Shown: piece by piece, positions 2,993 to 24,108 of the stretch
How the letters are laid out: every line of letters begins with the position of its first letter
Numbering within the stretch: the first letter of the stretch is position 1
From: Prosthecobacter sp.
GTDB lineage: Bacteria; Verrucomicrobiota; Verrucomicrobiia; Verrucomicrobiales; Verrucomicrobiaceae
Direction of reading: 5' to 3'
Assembly (NCBI GenBank): GCA_021733925.1
Contig: JAIPJY010000022.1
Location: 1 to 32,876, forward strand
DNA length: 32,876 nt
Notes under the pieces: model-generated
What the model was told of the DNA's origin: nothing
The model's database searches: none
The model's input: the letters and a program-made list of their open reading frames with translations, nothing else
Position numbers and translations under genes: made by a program

Positions 2993-3363
2993 GGGCTTGG
3001 GGGTGGGGATTGAACGCCCATCAGAGCACAGCAGCGCCTGAAAGCAACCACCGTGTACCGAGGGAAGCACCGGTCAAAGCAGGTTTGAGCGGCCAGGGCG
3101 TGAAGGGAGCCCGAAAATGACGAATGAGTAAATCCGAGCCGAGCAGAGCGAGACAGACGACCGAAGGGAGCCCGGAGGGTGAGCGAAGCGAATCAATCAC
3201 TAAAAAATGACGAAGTTCGCGGCTCGGTGTGTTGCATCGGCCATTGCCTGAATGAGGGTGTGACAAGCAGTGCGGCTGGCCTCCGCCCTTCGGATTTCGG
3301 CATTATCTCGTCATTCGGATTTACTCATTCGTCATTTGATCAATGCCAGCAAAATCAGCGTCG
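2993..3363. other. Gene-free region of about 370 bp with repeats
   Basis: No credible gene is present; short open frames here have no signal, motif or codon pattern. The stretch contains an inverted pair of the dispersed repeat (3116-3137 and 3315-3336) enclosing about 177 bp. It also has a direct repeat GAAGGGAGCCC at 3102-3112 and 3163-3173. The cupredoxin promoter should lie at the left end, reading leftwards. The base composition is patchier than in the flanking genes. Confidence 0.55.
3116..3336. repeat. MITE-like region bounded by inverted copies of a dispersed repeat
   Basis: The left arm at 3116-3137 is the exact reverse complement of 3315-3336 (22 nt). The right copy extends to the full 27-nt unit at 3310-3336, which matches 137-163. 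The roughly 220-bp size, inverted ends and lack of an ORF resemble a miniature inverted-repeat element. I see no target-site duplication, so mobility is only a suggestion. Confidence 0.5.
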
Positions 3364-4212
3364 TTACCGAGCCACTCCCGCCACCTCCGCCATCGCCTGC
3401 CCGATCTGCGGTGAAATCAGGTCCAAAAGGTCATTGTGATGCCCGCCCGGCACGGCATGAAATTTCACCACCTGCGGGTGGGCCGCCGCCAGTTCACGCC
3501 CCATGCTCACGGGGATCACCTCATCCTCCGCGCCATGGAAAATCACGAAGCGGGCTCCCGTGCGTGTTGTGACGTGGCCCAGTGTTTTGCGATTGTCGTA
3601 CCGGTGCAGGTTCAGGTAGCACAGCGGCCAGCCGAGCACGATGCGGCCCATGTCCGTCATGGTGGTGAAGGGGGACAGCAGCACCCCGCGCCGGATGTCG
3701 AGATCCTCCGCCGCCATCAAAGACGCCGCAGCGCCCAGCGAATGGCCCAGCACCGCCAGATGAGGCAGCATCTCCGCCTGGGACGTGTGCAGGTGCTTTG
3801 CCAGCGCCTCCACCGCCGCCTTGCCGCTCTCACGAATCCGCCCCGGTGTGGGTTTGCCCGCGCACTCGCCATAGCTCGGGTAATCGACCAGCAGATACGC
3901 AAAGCGGTCGTCCCACTCGTCAGTGAACTGCAGCCAGTCGAGCGCCAGCGAGCCATTCCCGGCGAAGCAGAGCCAGACCGTCTGCGGCAGCCCGGTGGCA
4001 GGTGTGCGTGGGGGGATGTAGAACGCCGTCTGGAGCCCCTGGGAGGTCTCAAAAAGCAGGCGCTCACCTTTGGCCGCTTGCAGCATGTTCTCATACTCCG
4101 CCCGGTAAGGATTCGGGTGGTAGATGAGACTGGACTGGCAGCTGAGGAGAAAGATCAAAGGCGTGAGAACGAGGATGGCGGTGAGGCGCAGCAGGCGTTT
4201 CCGGAGCGTCAT
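3364..4212 (-). CDS. Alpha/beta hydrolase, predicted lipoprotein
   Basis: A 282-residue protein. The N-terminus has a basic start, a hydrophobic stretch and a lipobox-like 'FLLSC' with Cys25, pointing to lipid anchoring after signal peptidase II cleavage. The hydrolase core has 'CFAGNGSLALDWL' (an oxyanion-loop-like segment) and the nucleophile elbow 'VLGHSLGAA' (Ser158). 'FHGAEDEVIPVS' supplies Asp230, and 'VPGGHHND' supplies the His (258 or 259), so the catalytic triad is complete. The fold resembles the BAAT/YfhR-like serine hydrolases often annotated as peptidases or esterases; the substrate is unknown. The gene follows the small BamE-like membrane protein by 5 bp and is likely translated from the same mRNA. 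Confidence 0.87.
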   Translation of the reverse strand: MTLRKRLLRLTAILVLTPLIFLLSCQSSLIYHPNPYRAEYENMLQAAKGERLLFETSQGLQTAFYIPPRTPATGLPQTVWLCFAGNGSLALDWLQFTDEWDDRFAYLLVDYPSYGECAGKPTPGRIRESGKAAVEALAKHLHTSQAEMLPHLAVLGHSLGAAASLMAAEDLDIRRGVLLSPFTTMTDMGRIVLGWPLCYLNLHRYDNRKTLGHVTTRTGARFVIFHGAEDEVIPVSMGRELAAAHPQVVKFHAVPGGHHNDLLDLISPQIGQAMAEVAGVAR

Positions 4213-4217
4213 GGGGT

Positions 4218-4658
4218 TCAGTCGGGGGAATAGGTTTTGGCGACCACTTTGCCCTCCTTGAGAGTCAGGAGGATGGCCTCGCAGTTCAGGGAGCTTTTGG
4301 GGTCCTCGGGGTCCATGAAAAAGGTCAGTACATCGGCTTCCTCCATGAAAATGTGCGGGGCCCGCCGGGGACCTTCGGCAGGGTAAATCTGCGCCTGCAG
4401 GGCCATCACCTCATCACGCGTCATGCCGATCTGGATGCCCTCATAAAAATCTTTGTAGCTGCGAATGCGCGCATCCACCCACTCAGGATTCACCGTCACG
4501 AGCACCAGCCCGGTCGGTGCCAGCGCCAGTAGGGCGATCAGCACCAGCAGCACCCTCAAGACCCAACTGCGCACCCGAAATACAGTGATCAGCATGATCA
4601 CCGTAACCACAGAGCCAAGCACAGCCAGCACAAAGATAGGATGGGGCGAGGAGCTCAT
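4218..4658 (-). CDS. Small membrane protein with a BamE/SmpA-like domain
   Basis: The start at 4658 (MSSSPHPIF) is preferred over the ATG at 4688, because the first helix begins right after it; this gives 146 residues. Residues 7-25 and about 30-52 are two transmembrane helices. The remaining part, about 95 residues, holds 'YEGIQIGMTRDEVMAL', which resembles the first helix of SmpA/OmlA (BamE)-type domains, and a strand 'VLTFFMDPED'. The two-helix anchor is unlike true BamE, which is a lipoprotein, so the resemblance may be structural only. It forms an apparent operon with the lipoprotein hydrolase 5 bp downstream. The function is unknown. Confidence 0.7.
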   Translation of the reverse strand: MSSSPHPIFVLAVLGSVVTVIMLITVFRVRSWVLRVLLVLIALLALAPTGLVLVTVNPEWVDARIRSYKDFYEGIQIGMTRDEVMALQAQIYPAEGPRRAPHIFMEEADVLTFFMDPEDPKSSLNCEAILLTLKEGKVVAKTYSPD

Positions 4659-11585: not shown

Positions 11586-13070
11586 ATGCAGCCTGCCGCC
11601 AATGTTTTCCTAGTTCTGGGCCTGTCCCTTGCCGCCGCGTTTTCCCAGACGTCCGAATTCCGTACCTACACCAACACCCAGGGCAAGGCGGTGCAGGCCA
11701 AGCTCGTGGGCGTGGACGGCCCGAACGTGACCCTGGAGCTGGCAGGCGGGCAGAAGTACACCTTCGCCATCACCTCCCTTTCCGCAGCCGACCAGCAGTA
11801 CATCAAATCGGCGGCTGTTCCGGCTGCAGCACCCACGGCCAAGTATACTTTCAAGCCCGGCCCCAATGACAAGCTGGAGCCCGCCTCGGTGAACGAATCT
11901 GTCGGCCAGCCGCTCTTTGGCGATGCTCCTCTCTGGACCTCCTCCGCCGAGGAAATCGCCGCCAAGCTGAAAATTCCCCAGGAGTCCAAGACCAAGACCT
12001 CCAGCAGCTACCGCGCCTACACCAAGGACGACTACCAGATGTTCGGCGCCCATCCCTACTCCGTGGCGATGTATGCGGAAAACGACCAGGTGACCAACTT
12101 CTCCCTCGTCTTTGCCAACAAGGGCGACCTCTTCAGCGCCAAAGGCAGCGGCGAAATGCATTTCGACAAAGACACCCCGCCTGCAGAAGCGGCCAAGATC
12201 GTGAAAACAGCCATGGACAAGGACCTGGTCGCGATCGCAGCCGCACTCACCCAGAAGCTCGGCGAACCCAAGAAAGAGCGCTTTGGTGAGGGCTCGAATA
12301 AAATTGGTCGCATGACCGTGCAGCGCTGGGACTGGCGCGGGCATTCCATCCTTCTGGCCGAGGCTCCCGGTGAGTACGTTGGCGTCCAGATCGTCACCAC
12401 CGCCTTCGCGGATGCCGGCGGCAAAGTGGAGGACTTGACCGACAAGGTCATTCGCGCCCAGGCGCTGGCCAACCTTGAAAAGCGCCCGAACGGCGACGTC
12501 GTCATCGGTGAGATCCCCATGGTGGACCAGGGCCCCAAAGGCTACTGCGCCCCCGCCACCGCCGAGCGCGCCATGCGCTATCTCGGCGTCCCGGCGGACA
12601 TGTACATCCTTGCCAACGCCGGTGAGACGGGCTTTGGCGGCGGCACCAGCATCTCCACCCTGCTCGAAGGCATGGCCCCGCAGATCCGCAACAAGCGCCG
12701 CTCCTTTGACGCCTGGAAAGGTGAGCTCAAGATAAAGGAAATCGCCAAATACATCGACAAAGGCGTGCCGCTCATGTGGTGCCTCTTCAGCACCGACAAG
12801 TTCAACGAAACCGCCAACAAGCGCACCAAGGAGCGCAAGGACATCGCCGACTGGGCCGCCTGGAAGACCAAAGTCACCGGAGAATCCGCCGGCAACTCCC
12901 TGCCCAAGGACAAAGAATCGGGGCACGTTGTCCTCATCATCGGCTACAACAAGGACACCAATGAAATAGCCTTCAGCGACAGCTGGGGCGAACGCTACAA
13001 GGAACGCTGGATCACCCTCCCCGAAGCCGAGCAGGTCTCCCAGCAGTACTTTTACGTCGTGGGTTTCTGA
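11586..13070 (+). CDS. Secreted protein with an SHD1-like domain and a C39/papain-like peptidase domain
   Basis: A 494-residue protein with a signal peptide (1 to about 20). Residues 25-75 form an SHD1-like small beta domain ('TYTNTQGKAVQAKLVGVDG', 'KYTFAITSLSAADQQYI'), which is common in planctomycete and verrucomicrobial exported proteins. Residues about 110-275 form an alpha/beta region with no assigned family. The C-terminal part (about 308-494) is C39-like: 'MVDQGPKGYCAPATAERAM' with Gln315 and Cys321, 'SGHVVLIIGYN' with His447, and 'FSDSWGE' with Asp465. This completes a papain-type set. It would act outside the cytoplasm; the target is unknown. Its last 19 bases overlap the end of the convergent gene. 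Confidence 0.85.
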   Translation: MQPAANVFLVLGLSLAAAFSQTSEFRTYTNTQGKAVQAKLVGVDGPNVTLELAGGQKYTFAITSLSAADQQYIKSAAVPAAAPTAKYTFKPGPNDKLEPASVNESVGQPLFGDAPLWTSSAEEIAAKLKIPQESKTKTSSSYRAYTKDDYQMFGAHPYSVAMYAENDQVTNFSLVFANKGDLFSAKGSGEMHFDKDTPPAEAAKIVKTAMDKDLVAIAAALTQKLGEPKKERFGEGSNKIGRMTVQRWDWRGHSILLAEAPGEYVGVQIVTTAFADAGGKVEDLTDKVIRAQALANLEKRPNGDVVIGEIPMVDQGPKGYCAPATAERAMRYLGVPADMYILANAGETGFGGGTSISTLLEGMAPQIRNKRRSFDAWKGELKIKEIAKYIDKGVPLMWCLFSTDKFNETANKRTKERKDIADWAAWKTKVTGESAGNSLPKDKESGHVVLIIGYNKDTNEIAFSDSWGERYKERWITLPEAEQVSQQYFYVVGF

Positions 13071-13768
13071 GCGGAAAGCTGCTGCCGCCGGGCGCAATCG
13101 ACACAGAGAATCCCGCCAAAGAAGAGGGCCATGCAAACGCCCACCAGCCGGTTCAGGAAGGCAGCTTCGTCGCTCCGCAGGCTTGCCATCACATCAGCGA
13201 TCACGACCACCTCATCGTAAAAAAGCGGACTGGCCGCGTTCAAGACGGCAAGATCCGCCGACGTGAAACGACTGGCATCGCAACCCGTGCGCCGCAGGAT
13301 GTCCGGCAGGGTTTTGGCAGCTTCATGGATCATGATCAGCCCATGGATGCAGATTTCGGGTCCGTCGCGATCATTGAGCAATACCACCACCCTCTGCCCC
13401 TCCCTGAGATGACGGTAGGTTCCCCAGTCCGGCTCCAGTTGCTGATACTTGTCGTGTTCATCGCTGGTGTGAAATCTGACGCTCGTCGCGCCCGCCAGAT
13501 CCGGCATCCTGCCATACATCGCTTCGATGCGCAGAGTGCAGGTCTCTTCCAGCAGGATCTCAGCCGGAGATTGGCGGACTTGAGAGGTGGACGAAGTCAC
13601 CATTCCAATCAAAATCGCATCCGAGGACGTGAAGCGGGCATAACCGTGGGACTCCGTGTAAATCTCCACTTCCTTGGGTGAAGTACCAAGAGGTATGACC
13701 GGCGGCGGACGCGACACCTGCGCCATGCAGCAGGTCGTCCATCCAAGCAGCAGGAGCCACCTCATCAC
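13052..13768 (-). CDS. Unknown exported membrane protein
   Basis: A 238-residue protein; two adjacent ATGs (13768 and 13765) are equally plausible starts. It has a signal-like N-terminus (MRWLLLLGWTTCCMA) and a C-terminal transmembrane helix (about 210-225) followed by a short Cys-containing basic tail, so most of it should lie outside the membrane. Segments such as 'SSDAILIGMVTSSTSQ' and 'REGQRVVVLLNDRDG' suggest beta structure reminiscent of OB-like or NfeD-like folds, but I cannot assign a family. It starts one base after the aroC stop, so it is probably expressed with aroC despite having no clear link to it. Its 3' end overlaps the peptidase gene by 19 bp. Confidence 0.75.
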   Translation of the reverse strand: MMRWLLLLGWTTCCMAQVSRPPPVIPLGTSPKEVEIYTESHGYARFTSSDAILIGMVTSSTSQVRQSPAEILLEETCTLRIEAMYGRMPDLAGATSVRFHTSDEHDKYQQLEPDWGTYRHLREGQRVVVLLNDRDGPEICIHGLIMIHEAAKTLPDILRRTGCDASRFTSADLAVLNAASPLFYDEVVVIADVMASLRSDEAAFLNRLVGVCMALFFGGILCVDCARRQQLSAQKPTT

Positions 13769-13769
13769 A

Positions 13770-14855
13770 TCACCCCCTCATGGCCCGCTGGCGCAGGAAA
13801 TGGTCTGCCAGCACGAGGTGCACCATCGCCTCCACCATCGGCACGGCGCGTGGCAGCACGCAGGCATCGTGGCGACCGCGCGCGGACAAGGTCGTGTCCT
13901 CGCCGGTGTTGGTCACGGTCTTCTGCTCGCGCAGTACGGTGGCGGTGGGTTTGAAGGCGACGCGGAAGACGATCTCCTCCCCGTTGCTGATGCCGCCCTG
14001 AATACCGCCGCTGCGGTTGGTGCGGGTGCGGACAGTGCTGCCGTCCATGTAGAATTCATCATTGTGCTCCAAGCCCGTCATCTTCGAGCCTGCAAAGCCG
14101 CTGCCGATTTCAAATCCCTTGGTCGCTGGCAGGCTCATCATCGCCTTGGCCAGATCGGCCTCCAGCTTGTCAAACACCGGCTCACCCAAACCAGCGGGCA
14201 CACCGCGCACGACGCACTCAATCACTCCGCCGACGCTGTTGCCTTCACTGCGGATTTTCTCGATCAGCTCGATCATCTGCTCCGCCGCGACTGGGTCACA
14301 GGTGCGGACGATGTTGGATTCGATCACCGCCGAATTGAGCTCCGCGCCCGTCGGCACTTTCGCCTCGATGTTCTGCACCGTCTTGACGTAGGCGAGGCAT
14401 TCGTAACCGCTGAGCGAGTGCTGCAAAACCTTGCGTGCAATGGCACCCGCCGCCACGCGGCCAATCGTTTCGCGTGCGCTGGACCGGCCACCGCCTGAGA
14501 CAGCGCGGATACCGTACTTGGCATCATAAGTGTAATCCGCGTGGCTGGGCCGGTAGGCCTGCTGCATTTCGGTGTAGGCCGAAGGACGCTGGTCCGTGTT
14601 GCGCACCAGAATGCCAATCGGGGTGCCGAGCGTGAGTCCATCGAGCACGCCGGAAAGGATCTCCGCCTTGTCGTCCTCTTTGCGCGGCGTGACGATCTTG
14701 CTCTGGCCGGGGCGGCGGCGGTCAAGTTCGGCCTGGATGTCCTCCACGGTCAGGGGGATGCGTGGCGGGCAGCCGTCGATGACGACGCCAACGCCGATGC
14801 CATGGGATTCACCCCAGGTGCTGATGTGGAAAAGGGTACCGAGACTGCTGGACAT
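13770..14855 (-). CDS. aroC: Chorismate synthase
   Basis: A 361-residue protein of the full family length. It has the three chorismate synthase signatures in recognisable form: '[20 protein letters not shown]' near the N-terminus, '[19 protein letters not shown]' in the middle, and '[18 protein letters not shown]' near the end. Conserved His, Arg and Ser residues of the FMN/EPSP site are present. It converts 5-enolpyruvylshikimate-3-phosphate to chorismate, using reduced FMN without net redox change, as the last common step of aromatic amino acid synthesis. No other aro gene is nearby. The following small gene starts one base after the stop. A 79-bp near-palindrome lies 42 bp upstream of the start. 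Confidence 0.97.
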
Positions 14856-14896
14856 GTTCGGCCATCATGGGGCAATCCGTCCACGGTTCAAGAAAA

Positions 14897-14975
14897 GTAC
14901 TCATGAGCTTTAGCTCATTCTGGATTCCGGGAGAAGCGAACGCGCATTCCAGAATAAGCTAAAGCTCATGAGTAC
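14897..14975. repeat. Long imperfect palindrome (30-bp arms, 19-bp spacer)
   Basis: The arms at 14897-14926 and 14946-14975 are reverse complements with two mismatches. Both begin, from the outside, with GTACTCATGAGCTTTAGCT. Each arm also contains a smaller internal palindrome (TGAGCT-TT-AGCTCA on the left; AGCT-AA-AGCT on the right). The element lies between the divergent aroC and phosphodiester glycosidase-like genes. It may be a small mobile or REP-type element, or a structured regulatory site. Its right end supplies an ATG (14968) that is in frame with the next gene. Confidence 0.8.
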
Positions 14976-15018
14976 ATTGGATTTCCGGCTTTACCCGGTT
15001 CTAGGGTTGTGCGTTTGC

Positions 15019-15801
15019 ATGAATTCAGCATCCTCTCCCATGACCCTTCCCCGCTGGCTCCTCACGCTTTTCGGCTGCGCCACGATCACCTCGCACCTGC
15101 ATGGCGCGGAAACGGTGGATTACGAAGGCGCGCGCTACCACCTCTACCGTGTGGACAAAGCCGACTGGGCACGTCTGCAACTCGCCTGGCTGGGAGACAA
15201 CGGCCAGCCGCTGGGAGATTTCAACGGCCTGCGCCGCCAGCTGGCCTCTCGCCAAAAGCAGATCATCTTCGCCACCAACGCCGGCATCTACGAACGCGGC
15301 CCGAAACCCTGCGGGCTGACCATCTGCGCCAGCAAAGAACTGGTGCCGCTGAATCTACAGCCGGGCGAAGGCAACTTTTTCCTCAAACCCAACGGCATCT
15401 TCTACCTCGACGACACGGCTGGACCCGGCGTGATGGAAGCGGCGGAATTTGCCAAAAGCGGCCTCAAACCGCGCCTCGCCACGCAGTCCGGCCCGCTGAT
15501 GCTGCGCCAGGGCGTGATCCATCCCGCCTTCCGGGTGAACTCACCCAACAAACGCCTGCGCAATGCCGTGAGCATGCGCAAGAAAGACGGGCAGATCATC
15601 TTTGCCATGAGCGACCGCGACGACTCTGTGAAAGGGCGCGTGACCTTCCACCAGTTCACCCGCTTCTTCCAGCACCTCGGCTGCGAAGACGCCCTCTACC
15701 TCGACGGCGACATCTCCAACATGCTCATCGATCCGAAACCAGACGCCAAGTTCACCCCGAACACCTTCGCAGGCATGTTTTTTGTGGCAGAGCCACAGTA
15801 G
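15019..15801 (+). CDS. Exported phosphodiester glycosidase-like (NAGPA/DUF2233) protein
   Basis: About 260 residues. Possible starts are 15019 (chosen) and 15040; the upstream ATG at 14968 lies inside the palindrome and would add a poor leader. The signal peptide ends near HLHGA. The DUF2233 domain is clear: 'IIFATNAGIYERGPKPCGL' carries the NAG-[IM]-Y motif, with 'PNGIFYLDD', 'LATQSGPLML' and 'ALYLDGDISNML' following. The family includes the mammalian uncovering enzyme that removes N-acetylglucosamine from phosphodiesters, and bacterial enzymes acting on sugar-phosphate polymers. A second member is encoded at 26327-27142. The stop codon is part of the GTAG of the following REP-like element. 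Confidence 0.88.
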   Translation: MNSASSPMTLPRWLLTLFGCATITSHLHGAETVDYEGARYHLYRVDKADWARLQLAWLGDNGQPLGDFNGLRRQLASRQKQIIFATNAGIYERGPKPCGLTICASKELVPLNLQPGEGNFFLKPNGIFYLDDTAGPGVMEAAEFAKSGLKPRLATQSGPLMLRQGVIHPAFRVNSPNKRLRNAVSMRKKDGQIIFAMSDRDDSVKGRVTFHQFTRFFQHLGCEDALYLDGDISNMLIDPKPDAKFTPNTFAGMFFVAEPQ

Positions 15802-15909
15802 CCATCTCGCTCCGCGAGATGAGCAAAGCGTGATCGCACTCGCAGAGCGTTTGCGTACCACCTCAGCATACGAAAGCGTTGTGTACCTCTCGCGGAGCGA
15901 GAAGACTAC
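15798..15909. repeat. REP-like pair filling a convergent gene junction
   Basis: The left unit is GTAG (15798-15801) plus the hairpin CATCTCGC-TCC-GCGAGATG (15803-15821). The right unit, inverted, is TCTCGC-GGA-GCGAGA (15888-15902) plus CTAC (15906-15909). On the opposite strand it again reads GTAG, stem, TCC loop. The two units have nearly the same stem. The element fits exactly between the stop codons of two convergent genes and could also act as a terminator. Confidence 0.75.
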
Positions 15910-15910
15910 T

Positions 15911-17461
15911 TTAGGCCTCCACCGTCTTCTCCGCCATCATCACCGGCGCGGTAGCAGGAGTCGGTGCCAGCCAGGTGGTGATCTCCGCCTTGATCCAGAC
16001 CTTGATCCCCGCCCACAGCAAGCGCGCGGCGGTGGGGTCAGGCGACAGGCTCATGAACGGCATCCAGACGTGCCCGGTGTTGGCGCGTCCATAGATGCCC
16101 TTGCGCCGGCGCTCCTGCGCGAGGTGCACAAAGCGGCGGTTGTAGAAAGCCATGAATCCGCCAAAAAACGCACCCGCTTTCCCTTCGTACGGCATCTGCT
16201 TCCATTCAGTCTCCGGAGAATCATACACCCCACGCACCGGGCCGAGGAAATACGCGGAGAGGTCCAGCAGAAACGTCGCGTTCACCAGCTCCGCGTCGCC
16301 CAAGTAGGAATATTTGTCCTTGTACAGCGCATTGAACCACAGGCGATAGCTGCGCGGGTAGGCCATGTTCAGGTAGTCGGTGATCTTCTGGGTGTTTTCA
16401 CCCGCCAGGTTCCTTTCCACCATGTCGACCGCCGCAGACACCGTGTGGCCGCAGTAGTCGAGACCATGGCTGTACAAAGGGTCCATGAACCCGGCCGAGT
16501 CACCCACCATGACCCAGCGGTTGCCCGCGATGCGCTCGGAGCGGTACGCGAGGTTCTTGTAGTAGAAGGTGTCGTCCGCATCCGGCACGGCGTTTTCAAA
16601 CATGAGCCGGCCAATCGGGTGCGTCATCAAATGAGCCTGCAGCCGGGCAATGAGAGACGGCCCCTCCGGCAGCGTGAAAAAGCGCCGGTCCCAGGTGATG
16701 CCGGCACTGAAGCTGCCATCGGACAGCGGGATGATCCAGCACCACCAGCCATGCCCCATGAGATGATTCGTTGCCGTGGTGCGCAGCTGGCTCACGTTTT
16801 CCGCGAGCTTCGGGTGCATCTTGCGGCTCTTGTAGCTGTCGAGCCCGTTCACATTGCGGAAACGGCACCAGATGGACGAGGTGGGGTGCTCGCTCTCCAT
16901 GGAGCTGTGCAGGCCGAGTTTCTTCGACAGCACGGCAGCCTTGCCGGAAGCGTCGATCAGCCAGCGCGTGGTCACCGTGCGCATCTGCCCTTCCTGCGGC
17001 ATGATTTCCAGCGTGTGCGGGGCCTCATCCTCCGAGAGCGTGATGGTTTTGATCGTGGCCGGGCGCAGCAGCTCGCAGCCGAAGTCACAGGCCTCCTTGA
17101 GCAGGTGCTCGTCGAGGATGGCACGATCCAGCTGGAAGGTGGGCAGCCGGGACTGGTAGCGCGGCCCGATTTCGGTCAGGCAGCCCACATCATCGTCCGG
17201 CGTCTTGCAAAACCACATGCGCAGACCGTGCTTTTGATAGTGATGCGCACTGAGATGATGCCCCTGATGCAGTACGCGGGTGAGGAAGCAGCCCGCCACC
17301 TCGGAAGTGCTTTCCCCCACTTTGCGGTCAAACTGCACCGTTCGCTCCACGATGAGAATGCGCATGGCCGGATGTTCACGTTTGAGCATCATTCCCGCCG
17401 ATGCACCGGAAAATGCGCCTCCCATGATGACCACGTCGAAATCTGTGCTAGTTGAGGTCAT
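15911..17461 (-). CDS. FAD-dependent oxidoreductase related to flavin-dependent halogenases
   Basis: A 516-residue protein. The N-terminal dinucleotide-binding strand is 'DVVIMGGAFSGASAG' (GGAFSG at 14-19), followed by 'VERTVQFDRKVGEST', whose GES/GEA-type motif is shared with halogenases. 'HGWWCWIIPLSDG' contains WxWxIP (240-245), the signature of flavin-dependent halogenases, and 'VMVGDSAGFMDPLYSHG' (318-334) is the second FAD motif. I could not identify the Lys that tryptophan halogenases use to pass on hypochlorite, so the enzyme may be a halogenase or a monooxygenase/dehydrogenase of that superfamily. Similar proteins occur in aryl-polyene, xanthomonadin and flexirubin-type pigment loci. 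It is divergent from the acyltransferase gene, with 89 bp between starts. Confidence 0.85.
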   Translation of the reverse strand: MTSTSTDFDVVIMGGAFSGASAGMMLKREHPAMRILIVERTVQFDRKVGESTSEVAGCFLTRVLHQGHHLSAHHYQKHGLRMWFCKTPDDDVGCLTEIGPRYQSRLPTFQLDRAILDEHLLKEACDFGCELLRPATIKTITLSEDEAPHTLEIMPQEGQMRTVTTRWLIDASGKAAVLSKKLGLHSSMESEHPTSSIWCRFRNVNGLDSYKSRKMHPKLAENVSQLRTTATNHLMGHGWWCWIIPLSDGSFSAGITWDRRFFTLPEGPSLIARLQAHLMTHPIGRLMFENAVPDADDTFYYKNLAYRSERIAGNRWVMVGDSAGFMDPLYSHGLDYCGHTVSAAVDMVERNLAGENTQKITDYLNMAYPRSYRLWFNALYKDKYSYLGDAELVNATFLLDLSAYFLGPVRGVYDSPETEWKQMPYEGKAGAFFGGFMAFYNRRFVHLAQERRRKGIYGRANTGHVWMPFMSLSPDPTAARLLWAGIKVWIKAEITTWLAPTPATAPVMMAEKTVEA

Positions 17462-17550
17462 GCATGCAAGTGGTGAAAAAGTCGGTTGTCGGAAGCAGTG
17501 TGACAGTCGAAACAGAACGTCTCATTCCATCCATGCTACGCCTTTAAATA

Positions 17551-18486
17551 ATGCCGTCCGCTGATTCTGCAACCCACGAGCCGAACGCGCCGCCCCCTCC
17601 CCCGCGCATGGGTCTGCATGATGCATGCTGGACGGAGGCGATTTTGTCTCTCATGCGCTGGGTGCCCGCGCCTGTCTTCACGCTGTTCGCCTATCCCATC
17701 ACCGCCATCGCTTACATCCTGGCGGTGGAGCCGCGTGAGGCCATACGTGCCAATCTCAGCGCCCTCATTCCCGGCAAAGGCTCCAGTTGTCTGGCAGGAT
17801 TTCAGGTGTTTCTTCAGTTTTCGCTCACCTATCTCGACCGGCTCTGGTATCTGCATTTTCAGCGCAAGATCGACTGGGAGATCATCGGCGAAGGCGACTT
17901 CGAGGATTTGGAAAAACATCCGGGCGGAGCGCTGATCTTCACGGTTCATTCGGGCAACTACGACATCGGCGCCAGCCTCTTCGCACGCAAATTCACCCGG
18001 CCCGTCCACACCGTCCGCATGCAGGAGGCCTCGGACTCGCTGAAAAAGCTGCGCAAGAAGGAACTGTGTGACGAAGAGGGCCGCGAGCCGAATCTGCACG
18101 TTCATTACAACGAACCCGGCGGCCATCTCGGCATGGAGCTGTGCCGCCTGCTCCTCGCTGGAGAAGTCGTCTGCGTTCAGGGCGACCGTGTGCTGGGTGA
18201 GGTGACCCCCACTCATGCCAGCATTGATGGCGTGACTTACAAAATCCCGCGCGGGCCGCTCGTGCTCGCGGAAGTGACTGGCGTCCCCTGCTACCCCGTG
18301 TTTCTCAGCCGCAGAGGGAGGCTCGCCTACCGCATCGAAATCGGCAAACCCTTCTTTGAGGGCGGGCGCAAGCGCAAAGCCGCCGAGATCAGCGCTGCCT
18401 GGCTCCCGGTGATGCACAATTTTCTTTTGCGGCACTGGGATCAATGGTTTGTCTTTGAACCGCTCGTCACACGTGACCCGCCATGA
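17551..18486 (+). CDS. LpxL/HtrB-like lysophospholipid or lipid acyltransferase
   Basis: A 311-residue protein. The N-terminus is proline-rich and soluble (1-25), followed by a hydrophobic segment at about 38-58 that would anchor it to the inner membrane. The acyltransferase HX4D motif is intact in 'IFTVHSGNYDIGA' (His133, Asp138), and 'IPRGPLVLAEVTGVPCYPVF' is typical of the lipid A acyltransferase family. In an LPS setting it would add a fatty chain to lipid A. Within this locus a role in esterifying a polyene or alkyl product is more likely (inference). Its stop overlaps the next start as ATGA (18483-18486), so the two genes are translationally coupled. Confidence 0.88.
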   Translation: MPSADSATHEPNAPPPPPRMGLHDACWTEAILSLMRWVPAPVFTLFAYPITAIAYILAVEPREAIRANLSALIPGKGSSCLAGFQVFLQFSLTYLDRLWYLHFQRKIDWEIIGEGDFEDLEKHPGGALIFTVHSGNYDIGASLFARKFTRPVHTVRMQEASDSLKKLRKKELCDEEGREPNLHVHYNEPGGHLGMELCRLLLAGEVVCVQGDRVLGEVTPTHASIDGVTYKIPRGPLVLAEVTGVPCYPVFLSRRGRLAYRIEIGKPFFEGGRKRKAAEISAAWLPVMHNFLLRHWDQWFVFEPLVTRDPP

Positions 18487-19307
18487 AGGCTGACATTCGC
18501 GCCAGCTGCCTGAGGCGTGCGTACTTTCGCTTCGCTCTCACCCTCGCACCCATTCCCGTGGTGATCTGGCTGGCAGCTCGCGGGCAGCCCCTGGCCGCTG
18601 CGCTGCTGTTTTGCACCGTCCTGACCACCATGGTGATCGGCACACTGGTGCCGCGCTGCTCCCTGTTTGGCCGCATGATCAAACAACTGCCGCAGGCTGA
18701 AAACCAGGCGCTGCTCACCATCGATGATGGCCCCCACCCCGAGCACACCCCGGCGATTCTCGACATCCTTGACCGTCATCGCATCAAAGCGCTGTTCTTT
18801 CTGGTCGGTAAAAATGCCGCCCTGCATCCGCAGCTCGTGCGCGAGATCATCACGCGCGGCCACGAGATCGGCAACCACACGCAGACGCATCCTGCCGGCA
18901 CTTTTTGGATACTGCACCCGGGGCGGTTGTGGCGCGAGATCGCGGACTGCCAGGAGACGCTGGCCGCCCTCTGCCCCGATCAGCCCCCGCGTTTTTTCCG
19001 CCCGCCCGCAGGCCATCACAACCTCTTCACCGCGCTGATCGCCCATGCCCTGGGTCTGCGGATGATGCTGTGGAGCGCACGAGGATTTGACGGCGTGCTG
19101 ACCGACGTACCCACCATCACGCAGCGCATCGCCCGCCGGCTGAAAGCAGGCGCCATCGTGCTGATCCATGAAGGCACCCCCGTGGCCGTCGAAGTGGCGC
19201 AGGCCGTGACTTCCCTGCTGACGGCTAGCGGCCTGAAATGTGTGCCGCCCGACTCACTCGCGTTCAGCGACGACGAGGTGGTTGTTGAACGGCGTGCCGC
19301 CCCATAG
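18483..19307 (+). CDS. Membrane-anchored polysaccharide deacetylase (NodB/CE4) family protein
   Basis: A 274-residue protein. Residues about 15-32 and 37-56 are two transmembrane helices. The NodB domain follows, with the full set of carbohydrate esterase 4 motifs: 'LLTIDDGPHPEHTP' (Asp81, Asp82), 'IGNHTQTHPAG' (His132, His136), 'FFRPPAGHHN' (Arg173) and 'AGAIVLIHEG' near the end. A metal-dependent N- or O-deacetylase activity is expected. The substrate need not be a polysaccharide; in this gene set it may be a lipid-linked or pigment intermediate (inference). It is coupled by a 4-bp overlap to the acyltransferase, and its last 54 bases overlap the end of the convergent methyltransferase gene. 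Confidence 0.9.
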   Translation: MKADIRASCLRRAYFRFALTLAPIPVVIWLAARGQPLAAALLFCTVLTTMVIGTLVPRCSLFGRMIKQLPQAENQALLTIDDGPHPEHTPAILDILDRHRIKALFFLVGKNAALHPQLVREIITRGHEIGNHTQTHPAGTFWILHPGRLWREIADCQETLAALCPDQPPRFFRPPAGHHNLFTALIAHALGLRMMLWSARGFDGVLTDVPTITQRIARRLKAGAIVLIHEGTPVAVEVAQAVTSLLTASGLKCVPPDSLAFSDDEVVVERRAAP

Positions 19308-19922
19308 CGGCTGCACTTCCACCCGCAGCCCGGCAGCACCCAGCACGGACTCGAACAAAGCACGGTCCGGGTAGCACACCGGGGCGGCCTTCATCCAGTT
19401 CGTCAGCCGCGCCAGCCAGTCTCCCGCCACAGTGATGCGAAAGCGCAGGGAGTCGTTCTGCAGGCAGGTGCGAATGATCAGCTTCCCGCCCTGCGCCACG
19501 CGGGATGCAGCCGCGCTCAGCAGCGCCTCCTGCTCCTCCCGTGTGAAAAACTGCAGAATGTCCAGAATGACCACATGGCCGCTGTATTCCGGGAGTCCTG
19601 TGCGGGCGTCGCCGGTCATGAAACTGAGCCCTTCAAAGCCGCTGAGCGAGGTCATGCTTTGCGCACAGGTGATTTTTTCCTCATCGTAGTCAAATCCGGC
19701 GATGGCAGGCACACACCCTGACTCACGCAGGTAAAACGCCAGCAGGCCGATGCCGCAGCCGATGTCGAGCACCGGCAGCGGGGAGCCCAGCAGTTCCTTG
19801 GTGACGGCGGCATAAACCGGGTCTGAACGCAGCTTTGCCACCGCGTAGAATCGCTCCCGGCGCCGGGCGCAAAGCCGGGTGATGCGCTTGAGGGCTCTGG
19901 AGGGCAAACGAGTGTTCATCAT
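19254..19922 (-). CDS. Class I SAM-dependent methyltransferase
   Basis: The start at 19922 is chosen because its ATG overlaps the AMP-ligase stop as ATGA; an ATG at 19937 is possible but lies inside the upstream gene. It is 222 residues. The SAM-binding motif I is 'LPVLDIGCGIGLLAFYL' (50-66), motif II is 'AIAGFDYDEEKI', and the post-motif region includes 'GHVVILDILQFFTREEQ' and 'GGKLIIRTC'. It probably methylates an O or C position of the locus product, as methyltransferases do in aryl-polyene loci (inference). The N-terminus is unusually basic (LPSRALKRITRLCARRR) and might instead be a remnant of the AMP-ligase C-terminus in another frame. Confidence 0.87.
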   Translation of the reverse strand: MMNTRLPSRALKRITRLCARRRERFYAVAKLRSDPVYAAVTKELLGSPLPVLDIGCGIGLLAFYLRESGCVPAIAGFDYDEEKITCAQSMTSLSGFEGLSFMTGDARTGLPEYSGHVVILDILQFFTREEQEALLSAAASRVAQGGKLIIRTCLQNDSLRFRITVAGDWLARLTNWMKAAPVCYPDRALFESVLGAAGLRVEVQPLWGGTPFNNHLVVAERE

Positions 19923-21136
19923 GGTCTGCCAATCCATTTACGCGGGACTTCCCAAGGTGCGAGCAAGGAACAAGCCGTTATTTTAAACGCGGGATCGATC
20001 TCCGCCTGCGGCAGGCCGATGTCCGCCACGATGTCCTGACAGCGTTCGGGATCGCGACTCCGAGCGCCATAAATTTTCACATTTTCCAGCTTGGATGCCC
20101 GCATGATTTTTTCAGCAATCTCGATGGGGCTGAGCTTGCGGCCCGCCACGTTGATTCCTGCACCTGTACAGCGCTCAAAACGCAGGCGGTTCCCATGCGG
20201 CTCGATCAGATCGCTGGTGGTGAACACCCCGGAACCATAGTTCTCCTCCTGCAACTGCTCATCATAACCCAGGCCCACCGAGCTGCTGGTCACGACCAAT
20301 CGGCCTTCGGCGTCCGTTTGTGCCTGCACACCGGGCAGGAGGGTGCCGAGATCACGCGCATCCTCACGCAGATCGAGCGTCTCATCCCAGGACACCGCAC
20401 CGCACTCGCTCGTTCCATAGAGATTGTGAATCTTCAGCCCATGATGCTCCAGCGCCATGCGTTCCAGGTCGAGCGTGAGCGGTGATCCCGCCGAGATCGC
20501 CAGACTGATGTTGTCAAAGCGGACATCGCCCATCAGCCAGGCCTTCCACAGGGCCGGGACGCCCGGCAGATACACCCGCTCGTGGTGCTTCATCGCCTCC
20601 ATCAGCGGCTGCGCAAAGGGCTGCGGTGCAAAGCAGGTGGGCACGCCGTTGAACAACGTTTGCAGCACCGTCATCGTCAGACCAAAGGAATGCGCGCAGG
20701 AAATCGCCGCCACCCCTGTGCCATGCGATCCCAGATCCAGCGCCTCATGCAGCCGGTCCACATCAGCGGCGATTTGGTCGAACGTGAAAAACTGGCACCG
20801 GCGCACTCCCGAACCACCGACAGCCTGCTTGATCAGCGCCGTACCCGCAGGCGGTGGGCGGGTGGGCGCGCGACGGGCGCGGTCTTTTTCCACCATCTGC
20901 ACCGGCACCCCGTGCAGAAACCCGGACAGCAGCTGGCGCATGATTTGTGGCACATCCCCCTGAGCCAGCACGTAATCCCCGGCAGGCTTCATGGCACGCA
21001 CTTCGGCATCCAGCTGTTGGAACGTGGTCGCACGTCCATCAGCAAGATACACCGCTGCCTGCGCGCCGCGCTCAGCTACAATACGATCCCAGCGTTCACC
21101 AAACATTTGCAGTCCTTGCGGCGAAGCGTAAACCAT
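19919..21136 (-). CDS. Short AMP-ligase (ANL superfamily) of the pigment-like locus
   Basis: The start at 21136 (MVYASPQGLQ) gives 405 residues; the ATG at 21193 would overlap the divergent ketosynthase gene. ANL motifs seen are 'NLYGTSECGAVSWD' (A5, 238-251), a TGD-like 'TSD' (307-309) and 'GINVAGRKLSPIEIAEKI' (A8). The phosphate-binding loop is degenerate ('LIKQAVGGSGVRRC', about 101-114), without the usual Ser/Thr-Gly-rich form. The protein stops at 'WEVPRKWIGRP', just before the A10 Lys would be expected. It could activate an aryl or acyl starter acid, or bind without full catalysis. It is coupled to the methyltransferase by ATGA and divergent from the ketosynthase with about 20 bp between starts. 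Confidence 0.82.
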   Translation of the reverse strand: MVYASPQGLQMFGERWDRIVAERGAQAAVYLADGRATTFQQLDAEVRAMKPAGDYVLAQGDVPQIMRQLLSGFLHGVPVQMVEKDRARRAPTRPPPAGTALIKQAVGGSGVRRCQFFTFDQIAADVDRLHEALDLGSHGTGVAAISCAHSFGLTMTVLQTLFNGVPTCFAPQPFAQPLMEAMKHHERVYLPGVPALWKAWLMGDVRFDNISLAISAGSPLTLDLERMALEHHGLKIHNLYGTSECGAVSWDETLDLREDARDLGTLLPGVQAQTDAEGRLVVTSSSVGLGYDEQLQEENYGSGVFTTSDLIEPHGNRLRFERCTGAGINVAGRKLSPIEIAEKIMRASKLENVKIYGARSRDPERCQDIVADIGLPQAEIDPAFKITACSLLAPWEVPRKWIGRP

Positions 21137-21156
21137 AGCCCGCGCCGTGCGGTAGA

Positions 21157-22440
21157 ATGAACACTTGCGTTCGCAGTTCAACCCTCCACACAACGAATCT
21201 CATCTTGTCTTCCCTACTGCCTTCACCTTTACGCCAGAGCATCGCCATCACCGGAGCCGGGATCGTCTCGCCGTTGGGCATGGGCTGGCAGGCGAATGAA
21301 GAGTCGCTGGCGGCGGACCGAATCGCCTTCAAGCCGGTCGAAATCTTCGACACCCGCGAATTCGTCACCAAAACCGCCGGTGTGGTCGATCTGCCCACAG
21401 AAAACCTGTTCCACCGCATCCCTGCCCACAAACAGGCCTTCTTTGACCGTGGCACGCGCATGCTGCTCATAGCCATCCGGGAGGCACTCGCACAGGCTGG
21501 CCGGCAGAACATGGAGGGCATCGACGCCATGGTCATTGGCACCTCCGCCGGGGCGATGCCTCTGGGCGAGTCCTATTTCGAGCACGCCTATCACGGTACA
21601 AGCCGCGATCCGACACAGCTCTCCCGCGCAGAGAATTATCAGCCACAGCGCCAGATGAGCAGCATCGCAGCCGAGTTTGACTGGCGCGGCCCGGTCATCA
21701 TCGTTTCCAATGCCTGTGCATCCGGAGCCAATGCCATTGGCTGGGCCGCGGAAATGATCCGCTCCGGCCGGGCCAAACGTGTGCTCGCAGGCGGTTACGA
21801 TGCCATCGCGAAACTCGTGTTTGCCGGATTTGAAACCTTGCACGCCCTCGCACCCAGTGGCATTCCGCGCCCCTTTGATGCGCAGCGGGATGGGCTCGCC
21901 CTCGGTGAAGGTGCCGCCGTCATGCTGCTGGAAGCCGAAGACGTGCGCCGAACCCCCGCTCTCGGAAATGTCGCTGGCTATGCCACCGCCACCGACCTGC
22001 ATCACCTCACTCAGCCTGATCCCGCAGGCAAAGCCGCCATCCGCACCATGACCGCCGCCTGCGCCCAGGCCGGTGTTTCACCGGCTCAGATCGGCTACAT
22101 CAACTCTCACGGCACCGGTACGCCGTTCAACGACGCAGCCGAAGCCGCCGCCATCGCCACTTGGGCGGGGGATGTGGTGGCCAGCATCCCCGTCAGTTCC
22201 ACGAAGTCCGCCATGGGTCATCTGCTCGGTGGGGCTGGAGCCGTCGAAGCGGTGATCTGCCTGATGGCCCTGCAGGGTCAGTGGCTGCCCGCGAGCCTGA
22301 ACGTGCGCGAGGTCGATCCCGCAGTGCGCTTTGATCTGGTGCGTCATTTCCGGCGCTCCTCGCTCGATTATGCGCTGACCAATTCCTTCGGTTTCGGCGG
22401 CACAAACGCGACCTTGGTTCTGCAAAGGAGGTCCGCATGA
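21157..22440 (+). CDS. Beta-ketoacyl-ACP synthase (FabF-like) with an intact active site
   Basis: A 427-residue protein. The family domain begins at 'SIAITGAGIVSPLG' (28-41), so about 25 residues precede the usual start; a TTG at 21205 is an alternative. The catalytic triad is complete: Cys187 in 'VSNACASGANAIG', His318 in 'INSHGTGTPFND' and His355 in 'SSTKSAMGHLLGGAGAVEA'. It catalyses decarboxylative Claisen condensation of malonyl-ACP with an acyl or aryl starter. The pairing with a second, active-site-poor ketosynthase (4-bp ATGA overlap at 22437-22440) is the KS/chain-length-factor arrangement of type II polyketide and aryl-polyene systems, not that of a housekeeping fabF, which usually has acpP next to it. 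Confidence 0.92.
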   Translation: MNTCVRSSTLHTTNLILSSLLPSPLRQSIAITGAGIVSPLGMGWQANEESLAADRIAFKPVEIFDTREFVTKTAGVVDLPTENLFHRIPAHKQAFFDRGTRMLLIAIREALAQAGRQNMEGIDAMVIGTSAGAMPLGESYFEHAYHGTSRDPTQLSRAENYQPQRQMSSIAAEFDWRGPVIIVSNACASGANAIGWAAEMIRSGRAKRVLAGGYDAIAKLVFAGFETLHALAPSGIPRPFDAQRDGLALGEGAAVMLLEAEDVRRTPALGNVAGYATATDLHHLTQPDPAGKAAIRTMTAACAQAGVSPAQIGYINSHGTGTPFNDAAEAAAIATWAGDVVASIPVSSTKSAMGHLLGGAGAVEAVICLMALQGQWLPASLNVREVDPAVRFDLVRHFRRSSLDYALTNSFGFGGTNATLVLQRRSA

Positions 22441-23462
22441 ACGCGAGCAATATTTGCATCCGTGGAGTCGGCGCGGTGAGCTCCGCCGGCTGGAACGCCG
22501 CCGCCATGCATCAGGCCGTTCTGGCTGGAATGCCGCTGCCCTCCAGACCCTGCGCCCGCCCCGGCGATGTGCGCAACTGGCCCTGCGAATCCCGCTTTGC
22601 GCCCGCCTCTCCGCCGGAAAAGATCGCCCGTCATCCGCGCCTGCGCCGCTCCAGCGCGATCACACGCTACTCCGTGGCTGCAGCATTGGAGGCACTGGCA
22701 GATGCCGGGCACGACCCAGCGGCACCACCTCCGGGTCTGGGCATTCTGTTCGTCATGATGAACGGATGCGTGAACTACACCGGCCGCTTCTTCCATGAGG
22801 TGCTGCAAAATCCCGCGCAGGCCAGCCCGTTGATCTTTCCAGAAACCGTGTTCAACGCGCCCGCCTCGCACGTCGCCTCCTTCCTCGGAGTCGATGGAGC
22901 GGTCAGCACCCTGCTGGGCAGTCCGAACTCCATCATGGAGGCGCTCGACACCGCCGCGTTCTGGATCGGCAGCGGCATCGTGGAGGAATGCCTGCTCATC
23001 GCCGCCGAAGAATGCGACTGGCTCAGCGCCGAAGGGCTCACCTATTACCACCCCAAGCTCATCGCTTCCGAAGGTGCCGGAGCTCTCCTGCTCTCTGCCA
23101 GTGGCAGTGGCCCCCGGGTCAGCGAATTGATCGGTCCCCTCGCCTATCTCTCCTGGCAGGAACGCTGCGACCTGCTGCCCGAACTCGCGGCACAAACACT
23201 GGCGCACTTCCAGGGTCCTGCCACGCTCATCAATGATCGCACGGGGATCCACAAACTCGACCACGCGGAGATCGCTGCCTGGTCAGGTCGGCCTTGGGAC
23301 GCCGTGCTCAGTCCGAAGTACGTCCTCGGTGAAAGCATGGGTGCCAGCAGCGCCCTGCAGCTCGTGCTGGGAACTCTGGCGGCGCGTCAGACGCAGCAGC
23401 CTGTCGTCATCTCCATGCCCGGCTCCAACACCGCCGCTTATGCGTGTGTGCTGACGCCGTAG
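22437..23462 (+). CDS. Ketosynthase-like protein lacking catalytic residues (chain-length-factor-like)
   Basis: A 341-residue protein with the thiolase-fold pattern: 'ICIRGVGAVSSAGWN' at the N-terminus, 'ITRYSVAAALEALADAG', 'NAPASHVASFLGVDG', 'SEGAGALLLS' and a C-terminal 'GSNTAAYACVL'. Where a ketosynthase has its Cys, this one reads 'VSTLLGSPNSIMEAL' (156-170), with no Cys. The KS 'K..MGH' region reads 'SPKYVLGESMGASSA' (292-305), with Glu299 at the His position. It is therefore unlikely to condense on its own. It probably forms a heterodimer with the intact ketosynthase, shaping chain length as chain-length factors do. It is shorter than a typical KS (about 410 residues). It converges on the DUF4412 gene with one base between stops. 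Confidence 0.87.
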   Translation: MNASNICIRGVGAVSSAGWNAAAMHQAVLAGMPLPSRPCARPGDVRNWPCESRFAPASPPEKIARHPRLRRSSAITRYSVAAALEALADAGHDPAAPPPGLGILFVMMNGCVNYTGRFFHEVLQNPAQASPLIFPETVFNAPASHVASFLGVDGAVSTLLGSPNSIMEALDTAAFWIGSGIVEECLLIAAEECDWLSAEGLTYYHPKLIASEGAGALLLSASGSGPRVSELIGPLAYLSWQERCDLLPELAAQTLAHFQGPATLINDRTGIHKLDHAEIAAWSGRPWDAVLSPKYVLGESMGASSALQLVLGTLAARQTQQPVVISMPGSNTAAYACVLTP

Positions 23463-23463
23463 C

Positions 23464-24108
23464 TCATCTCGGCGCTCCGGGCATTTTCATTTCAGTGTAT
23501 CCGGCTGGCGGCACGAACTCCTCCGGGGGCACCGTCTCCTCCTTGGCTGAGACAAGGTGTGAGTTCACTGACTTGCCCATCATCGTCACCTCAGATTTCA
23601 CCACCATGCCCTCGAAGTCTGAAGCCTGCGGTGACAATGCCGACATGGTCCCGCCCACGATCTTGCCAAGCTTGTCGCTGAAGGCGCTGATCTCGGCGTA
23701 ATTCGGAAAATCCTTCGCCACCCAGAAGCGGCCTTTGCCCATCTGACCTTCCCAGGTGTAAATTTCGGTGTCCCATTCGCCGACTTTTTCTTTCTGTCCG
23801 GTCGACACCGGTTTGGCGGCCGGCTGGCCTGCCGCACCTTTTCCCATCTTTTCCATGGCCGCCTTGATCGTAGCCAGATCCCTTTTCATGATCATTTTCT
23901 GCGCATGCATGATCATGGTCATGCCCTCAGTTCCCACGATCACGGACATCTTTTCTCCCATGTCCACCCGCGCCTGATCGTCTTTGATCTTGGTGGTCAC
24001 TTGAGTCTCTTTGCCTTCCGTGTTGGTTTTTTGTACCAGCACCCAGTCTGCTTGGGCAAGTGTGGCGGCCAGAAACAGGACGACAAGGGAGAAGGCGGAC
24101 GATTTCAT
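23464..24108 (-). CDS. Exported DUF4412-like protein (possibly LolA-like)
   Basis: A 214-residue protein with a signal peptide (1-20, ending LAQA). The mature part starts with strands 'WVLVQKTNTEGKETQVTTKI' and 'QARVDMGEKMSVIVG', includes the Met-rich 'MTMIMHAQKMIMKRDL', and later has 'GEWDTEIYTWEGQMGKGRFW'. This pattern fits DUF4412, whose predicted fold resembles the LolA/LppX lipid-binding barrel. Aryl-polyene loci usually encode a LolA-like carrier, so it may carry the lipid product across the periplasm (inference). It could equally be an unrelated neighbour, since it has its own promoter and faces away from the permease gene. Confidence 0.75.
   Translation of the reverse strand: MKSSAFSLVVLFLAATLAQADWVLVQKTNTEGKETQVTTKIKDDQARVDMGEKMSVIVGTEGMTMIMHAQKMIMKRDLATIKAAMEKMGKGAAGQPAAKPVSTGQKEKVGEWDTEIYTWEGQMGKGRFWVAKDFPNYAEISAFSDKLGKIVGGTMSALSPQASDFEGMVVKSEVTMMGKSVNSHLVSAKEETVPPEEFVPPAGYTEMKMPGAPR

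What the first reader, a model, noticed from the sequence alone, without database searches (positions are those of the whole stretch)
15911..24108. Compact eight-gene locus resembling a type II polyketide/aryl-polyene pathway but without carrier protein, ketoreductase or dehydratase
The genes present are a KS plus KS-like partner, AMP-ligase, methyltransferase, LpxL-like acyltransferase, NodB-type deacetylase, WxWxIP flavoenzyme and an exported DUF4412 protein. Three ATGA overlaps and nearly zero gaps argue that they work together. Aryl-polyene and flexirubin loci normally also encode ACPs, a KR, FabZ-like dehydratases, a thioesterase and an MMPL exporter, none of which is here. Either the pathway is split across the chromosome or it makes a new lipid or pigment class with borrowed fatty-acid-synthase parts.
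Basis: partly seen in the sequence, partly recalled or inferred. Interest (0 to 1): 0.72.

Follow-up and report, generated by a model that had tools for sequence, protein, structure and literature searches.

The report
Scattered polyene-pigment pathway with degenerate ligase
These genes look like one piece of a known type of bacterial polyene-pigment pathway whose seemingly missing parts lie elsewhere in the same genome, and the enzyme that should load its first building block has lost its catalytic motifs, so what the pigment is built from is an open question.

Summary
The eight genes are real but lie in five strand blocks, not one operon. Seven correspond to parts of xanthomonadin/arcuflavin-type aryl-polyene clusters: halogenase-like FAD enzyme, LpxL-like acyltransferase, deacetylase, methyltransferase, ligase, KS and short CLF. 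The "absent" parts are elsewhere in the genome: KR and ACP (with a flippase-like protein and a patatin) on contig C47, and a FabZ-like DH with a PlsC-like acyltransferase on C89. Relatives join the pieces: the same KR/ACP follow KS-CLF in 8 of 40 family and 17 of 40 wider neighbourhoods, and two genomes place FAD, LpxL, NodB, MT, DH, ligase, KS and CLF side by side. New here: the ligase is under purifying selection but lacks its ATP-binding P-loop and C-terminal catalytic lysine, in the window and in 24 of 32 family loci where it was seen. None of those 25 genomes has the full-length hydroxybenzoate-making chorismatase that all 8 with an intact ligase have. The starter unit is therefore unknown. 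DUF4412 is probably a LolA-like carrier fold (weak evidence). A dispersed, modified variant of a known pathway class.

The parts
15911..17461 (-). Halogenase-like FAD enzyme (arcA counterpart); keeps K77 (17222-17239), WxWxIP (16727-16744) and FxxPxxSxG (16463-16489)
   Evidence: Pfam Trp_halogenase; best PDB matches are flavin halogenases; motifs invariant in 6 of 6 aligned homologues. That these motifs mark halogenases is recalled.
17551..18486 (+). LpxL-like acyltransferase (arcD counterpart; resembles the C-terminal half of E. coli ApeJ), HSGNYD motif present
   Evidence: Pfam PF03279; motif; ApeJ residues 265-545 match at 22%, E 1e-8
18483..19307 (+). NodB-type polysaccharide deacetylase (arcN counterpart), metal-site motifs present
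   Evidence: Pfam PF01522, NCBIfam NodB below its cut-off; motifs
19254..19937 (-). SAM methyltransferase (arcM counterpart); may start at 19922
   Evidence: Pfam; homologues of 54-66% identity lie in the DH/acyltransferase/GT2 locus of other genomes, 7 of 20 DH loci
19919..21106 (-). Degenerate AMP-ligase (arcT counterpart): P-loop replaced (20798-20833), protein ends before the C-terminal lysine motif; longer start at 21193 possible
   Evidence: dN/dS 0.17-0.21 against three relatives
21157..22440 (+). Ketosynthase of the pathway (arcK counterpart); Cys-His-His motifs at 21709-21726, 22105-22119, 22204-22221
22437..23462 (+). Short KS-like chain-length-factor partner (arcJ counterpart) without catalytic Cys (22908-22934)
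   Evidence: relatives in 61 of 68 family genomes
23464..24108 (-). Exported DUF4412 protein, LolA/LolB/RseB-like half-barrel predicted; accessory, only in close relatives
   Evidence: Pfam PF14371; 7 of 40 family loci; fold comparison weak to moderate

Best explanation
The window holds the largest fragment found of a chromosomally dispersed xanthomonadin/arcuflavin-type polyene pathway of Verrucomicrobiota. Shown by sequence: KS-CLF, methyltransferase, halogenase-like flavoenzyme, LpxL-like acyltransferase, deacetylase and a ligase-like protein here; KR, ACP, a flippase-like membrane protein and a patatin on C47; a FabZ-like DH and a PlsC-like acyltransferase on C89; an MMPL exporter candidate on C80. 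Inferred: KS-CLF repeatedly extends an ACP-bound starter with malonyl-ACP, KR and DH turn each keto group into a double bond, MT and flavoenzyme decorate the head group, the acyltransferases and deacetylase build or mature a lipid or sugar anchor, and MMPL plus Lol-like carriers move it to the outer membrane. In this clade the ligase can hardly form an acyl-adenylate, and neither chorismatase nor aromatic ammonia-lyase was found, so the starter comes by an unknown route.
For: Relatives join the pieces: KR/ACP after KS-CLF in 8 of 40 family and 17 of 40 wider loci; L083 holds TM, patatin, FAD, ACP, KR, KS-CLF and ligase; L155 and L156 hold FAD, LpxL, NodB, MT, GT2, DH, ligase, KS and CLF. CLF, ACP and the divergent DH co-occur in 68 genomes, five lacking all three. 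The parts match the arc table of PMC3949708, where two unlinked loci are both needed. E. coli ApeO, ApeD, ApeE, ApeI, ApeJ halves match parts here or in relatives. KS tree separates the KS from FabF.
Against: No product is known. ApeB, ApeC, ApeH and ApeK gave no match at E 0.01. PDB ranks FabF entries well above 6qsp, which I recall as ApeO. No GT2 of the pathway kind was found in this genome (best 29-32%), no thioesterase was identified, and only one candidate DH where arc has two. Some genomes break the co-occurrence (G010, G033, G051, G066 CLF without ACP; G042, G057 ACP without CLF). Linkage of the C80 MMPL rests on 30-32% similarity only.
Confidence: 0.8

Rival explanations
1. The locus makes a new lipid with housekeeping fatty-acid-synthase ACP, KR and DH.
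For: No ACP, KR or DH in the window; the KS is FabF-like in general profile scans.
Against: Dedicated KR, ACP and DH exist and are neighbours of KS-CLF in relatives; housekeeping ACP, FabF and LpxC-FabZ-like genes are separate.
Confidence: 0.05
2. The pathway still makes an ordinary hydroxybenzoate-started aryl polyene: another, unlinked ligase and another starter enzyme (for example a UbiC-type lyase, or uptake of aromatic acids) do the lost steps.
For: MT and halogenase-like enzyme, which act on the aryl head in known systems, are kept under constraint. The genome is 93% complete and no UbiC or general ligase search was run.
Against: Chorismatase is absent from all 48 same-genus genomes at full length and aromatic lyase from 66 of them or more in the family, so loss is not an assembly gap; the ligase protein is kept although degenerate.
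Confidence: 0.4
3. The locus is decaying and makes nothing.
For: Lost ligase motifs, missing chorismatase and GT2, scattered parts.
Against: dN/dS 0.07-0.34 for seven tested genes; CLF kept in 61 of 68 family genomes; motifs of KS, DH, KR, ACP and deacetylase present.
Confidence: 0.05

Closest known systems
Arcuflavin (arc) loci of Azoarcus sp. BH72 (PMC3949708; abstract, sections 18 and 22 read)
   Same: Halogenase, acyltransferase, PS-deacetylase, methyltransferase, AMP-ligase, KS, N-terminal-KS protein, KR, ACP, DH, second acyltransferase; pathway already split into two unlinked loci, both essential there
   Different: Here at least three loci; chorismatase not found; ligase degenerate; GT of the pathway kind not found; one candidate DH instead of two; TM protein and patatin added beside KR-ACP
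Xanthomonadin-like pigment cluster of Lysobacter enzymogenes (PMC3691225; passages, sections 6 and 8 read)
   Same: KS with a short CLF-like partner; conserved neighbours halogenase and dolichyl-phosphate mannose synthase (GT2) in related clusters
   Different: Essential CLF glutamine of that study is not kept in the window (my column assignment; Gln in 14 of 119 rows); starter-making gene missing
E. coli CFT073 ape cluster (PMC8253772, passages; locus L255)
   Same: By blastp ApeO, ApeD, ApeE and ApeI match the window KS, C89 acyltransferase, C47 ACP and C89 DH; ApeJ matches GT2 of L155 and the window LpxL; ApeM weakly the C80 MMPL
   Different: ApeJ is a GT-acyltransferase fusion, here separate; ApeB, ApeC, ApeH and ApeK gave no match at E 0.01; genes contiguous in E. 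coli

Membership tests
Xanthomonadin/arcuflavin-type aryl-polyene pathway | KS with a short CLF-like partner lacking Cys, adjacent genes | tested here: met
Xanthomonadin/arcuflavin-type aryl-polyene pathway | Dedicated ACP, KR and DH | tested here: met
   On C47 and C89, linked to KS-CLF in relatives
Xanthomonadin/arcuflavin-type aryl-polyene pathway | Methyltransferase, PS-deacetylase, halogenase-like enzyme, LpxL-like and PlsC-like acyltransferases | tested here: met
Xanthomonadin/arcuflavin-type aryl-polyene pathway | XanB2-type chorismatase that makes the hydroxybenzoate starter | tested here: not met
   No match in own genome at E 0.01; the same query finds full-length matches in 14 of 68 family genomes
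Xanthomonadin/arcuflavin-type aryl-polyene pathway | Active aryl-acid AMP-ligase | tested here: not met
   P-loop and C-terminal lysine motif missing; by motif only, activity not assayed
Xanthomonadin/arcuflavin-type aryl-polyene pathway | MMPL exporter and LolA | tested here: inconclusive
   MMPL candidate on C80 at 30-32%; LolA-family gene beside FabF on C89; neither linked to the pathway in this genome
Xanthomonadin/arcuflavin-type aryl-polyene pathway | Aryl polyene product | not testable with these tools
   needs chemistry
Flexirubin (aryl polyene plus dialkylresorcinol) | DarA/DarB dialkylresorcinol genes | not tested
   A type III PKS locus on C31 is not a DarA/DarB pair by its Pfam matches; no dar search was run
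Housekeeping FabF | KS groups with FabF | tested here: not met
   Own C89 KS pairs with E. coli FabF (99/97); window KS inside the 21-row pathway clade (99/98) of a 26-row tree

The most novel reading that the evidence does not exclude
In the Prosthecobacter-like and Akkermansiaceae lineage an aryl-polyene machine has changed its starter: the hydroxybenzoate-making enzyme was lost and the loading ligase became a maintained pseudo-enzyme, so KS-CLF now begins on a different primer and makes a polyene lipid class not yet described, assembled from three or more scattered loci.
Probability: 0.35. Interest if true: 0.72.

Novelty: new variant of a known kind. Interest (0 to 1): 0.5.

Why it matters
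Cluster finders that expect contiguous genes would see only an odd KS locus, although the core is present in 61 of 68 genomes of the family. The parallel loss of starter synthase and ligase motifs poses a sharp, testable question: how is KS-CLF primed in a widespread phylum, and is the product still aryl? It also ties a patatin, a flippase-like protein and a DUF4412 protein to polyene-lipid biology.

Tried and rejected
Rejected: one eight-gene operon (five strand blocks). Rejected: loss of the CLF glutamine tracks loss of the ligase; the residue is too variable (Gln in 14 of 119 rows; some rows with the ligase lysine motif, such as L145 and L158, lack it). Rejected: contig C31 (ACP, KS, MT-like) as the missing half; it sits with a chalcone/stilbene-synthase-type PKS and a FAD monooxygenase, so I take it as a separate system. 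Rejected: weak chorismatase-like matches as starter enzyme; 14 of 68 genomes have only such matches, 8 of them among the 25 degenerate-ligase genomes; I opened 4 of the 14 and none lies beside pathway genes.

No use: CLF against plasmids found nothing and the FAD enzyme two weak records. PF22817 gave no answer, because no control rang. phmmer of the ligase against PDB found nothing at E 0.001. PDB entry 9s5h is matched by both KS (chain B) and CLF (chain C); its biology was not looked up. Paper searches: Prosthecobacter with pigment and polyene, 0 papers; xanthomonadin with Verrucomicrobia, 5 papers, listing only; aryl polyene with Verrucomicrobia, 21 papers, listing plus passages of one, Oceaniferula flavus, which reports an antiSMASH aryl polyene cluster; arylpolyene with Verrucomicrobiota and antiSMASH, 16 papers, listing only. 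So aryl polyene clusters in the phylum are already in print; I saw no description of the split layout or the degenerate ligase, in these searches only.

Limits: gene calls in relatives come from my own hexamer script, so starts and small genes are rough. Of 61 family genomes with a CLF match I opened 40 loci; of 288 wider relatives 80 were kept and 40 (L138-L177) counted, at least two of them (L169, L176) the same genomes as family loci. No genome search was left to test FAD/LpxL/NodB, UbiC or other ligases genome-wide. The absence sets behind the Fisher tests were copied by hand.
Full report
Observation. The window is positions 1-32876 of contig C19 (107,669 bases) of a 7.3 Mb genome in 127 contigs, 93% complete. 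Their strands run -, ++, --, ++, -, with three ATGA overlaps inside the three same-strand pairs. KS has its Cys-His-His motifs. The KS-like protein matches KSs mainly over its N-terminal half and has Pro at the Cys column; none of 119 aligned rows, many of them the same genome twice, has Cys there.

Where the missing parts are. The whole genome has eight carrier-protein matches and six KS C-terminal matches. One ACP, on C47, follows a KR-type SDR and precedes an LPG_synthase_TM protein and a patatin. FabA-type domains occur twice: in a 439-residue protein on C48 that I read as LpxC-FabZ, and as a free 146-residue DH on C89 beside a PlsC-like acyltransferase.

Linking the loci. CLF relatives occur in 61 of 68 genomes of the family. 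In the 40 family neighbourhoods I opened, the ligase gene is divergent to KS in 32, KS and CLF are fused in 14, KR/ACP homologues (54-59% identical to those of C47) follow CLF in 8, FAD, NodB and MT are present in 9 each, LpxL in 7 and DUF4412 in 7. In 40 wider loci (of 80 kept, 288 found) 22 have the divergent ligase and 17 KR/ACP after CLF. L083 joins TM, patatin, FAD enzyme (50%), ACP, KR, fused KS-CLF and ligase. L155 carries a PagL-like protein, chorismatase, FAD, LpxL, NodB, MT, GT2, DH (55%), ligase, KS and CLF in one run; L156 carries the same set (DH 51%) and adds a second FAD enzyme, TM and ACP; neither stretch has the KR. L157, L162 and L166 place the C89-type acyltransferase and DH near ligase-KS-CLF. 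Of 20 ACP loci opened, KR is beside ACP in 19, TM in 18 and patatin in 14; of 20 DH loci, the acyltransferase is present in 16, GT2 in 8 and the MT in 7; of 10 chorismatase loci, 6 have an MMPL gene next to it. The window's genes and those of C47 and C89 are thus pieces of one set.

Co-occurrence. CLF is missing in 7, ACP in 9 and the divergent DH (E 9e-32 or better) in 7 of 68 genomes; G044, G055, G056, G062 and G063 lack all three. Fisher tests give p 2.3e-4 (CLF-ACP), 4.0e-5 (CLF-DH) and 5.1e-6 (ACP-DH), not corrected for phylogeny or completeness. Against: G010, G033, G051 and G066 have CLF without ACP; G042 and G057 have ACP and DH without CLF; G030 and G051 have CLF without the DH.

What it is. 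The parts list agrees with the arcuflavin loci of Azoarcus (PMC3949708, section 18): halogenase, chorismatase, outer-membrane protein, acyltransferase, GT, KR, DH, N-terminal-KS protein, KS; and MT, PS-deacetylase, exporter, LolA, acyltransferase, DH, ligase, ACP. That paper says its two unlinked loci are both essential for the pigment (section 22). The Lysobacter study describes the same KS plus short CLF pair, with halogenase and dolichyl-phosphate mannose synthase as conserved neighbours in related clusters (PMC3691225, sections 6 and 8). In blastp with 12 E. coli ape proteins, ApeO matches the KS (32%), ApeD the C89 acyltransferase (33%), ApeE the C47 ACP (37%), ApeI the C89 DH (24%), ApeJ the GT2 of L155 (34%) and the window LpxL (22%), ApeM the MMPL of L138 and weakly that of C80, ApeL the LolA of L138; ApeF weakly the ACP; ApeB, ApeC, ApeH and ApeK nothing at E 0.01. 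The 26-row KS tree puts the window KS in a 21-row clade of verrucomicrobial pathway KSs (99/98), ApeO outside it (91/91, long branch), own FabF with E. coli FabF (99/97). Against: PDB ranks FabF entries (up to 233 bits) above 6qsp (145 bits), which I recall as ApeO.

Exporter and carriers. An MMPL gene of 793 residues on C80 matches those beside chorismatase in L244 and L249 at 30-32% over its length, but has unrelated neighbours. A LolA-family gene lies beside FabF on C89. GT2 of the pathway kind was not found here (best 29-32% against 41-44% in relatives).

The flavoenzyme. Its best PDB matches are flavin-dependent halogenases; K77, WxWxIP and FxxPxxSxG are invariant in 6 of 6 aligned homologues. 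That these mark halogenases is recalled, and halogenation is not shown.

The ligase and the starter. In the window the P-loop reads AVGGSG in place of TSGSTG, and the protein ends before the C-terminal lysine motif. Of 32 family loci with a ligase call, 24 share this and 8 (G009, G010, G011, G012, G060, G061, G065, G067) keep both motifs. In the wider set L142, L145, L146, L155, L156, L158 and L169 keep the lysine motif; the others lack it, several being partial gene calls. Full-length chorismatase (E below 1e-40) occurs in 14 of 68 genomes: all 8 with intact ligase, none of the 25 with degenerate ligase including this one, and G005-G008, G064 and G066, where no ligase was called or the locus was not opened. 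Eight of the 25 have only a weak, different chorismatase-like protein. Aromatic ammonia-lyase is absent here and found in 3 of 68 genomes. The degenerate ligase is under constraint: dN/dS 0.17-0.21 against three relatives, KS 0.10-0.15. In the KS tree the rows with a degenerate ligase form one supported clade (100/99) and those with the lysine motif lie outside it. The simplest reading is one loss of starter synthesis and adenylation, with the protein kept for another role. That loss of these two motifs abolishes adenylation is established knowledge of the enzyme family, recalled, not tested.

Verdict. A dispersed and modified xanthomonadin-type polyene pathway: ordinary in kind, unusual in layout, with an unsolved starter step.

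Noticed in passing
L015 (G000:C31) 12654-17410: A second small polyketide locus: chalcone/stilbene-synthase-type PKS, FAD monooxygenase, ACP, KS and a methyltransferase-like protein in a row.
   Followed up: partly
L016 (G000:C60) 2989-4224: A very divergent KS-like protein stands beside glycosyltransferase-like genes; extremely long branch in the KS tree.
   Followed up: no
L066, L068-L073, L086-L090 and others: In the other half of the genus KS and CLF are fused into one protein of about 740-850 residues; 14 of 40 family loci.
   Followed up: partly
L138 6013-12812: In one Verrucomicrobiales genome radical-SAM-like proteins flank KS, CLF and ACP of a polyene cluster that also has MMPL, LolA, LpxL-like and DH genes (radical-SAM naming is my reading).
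   Followed up: no
window 13770-15801: Chorismate synthase and a NAGPA-family gene stay beside the locus in close relatives (6 of 40 family loci each); whether this matters for an aromatic starter is unknown.
   Followed up: partly
L256 4880-6259, L257 9210-10472, L258 8647-10008, L259 9226-10356: A chorismatase-like protein of unknown role lies beside conserved sets of secreted-protein genes in several relatives.
   Followed up: no
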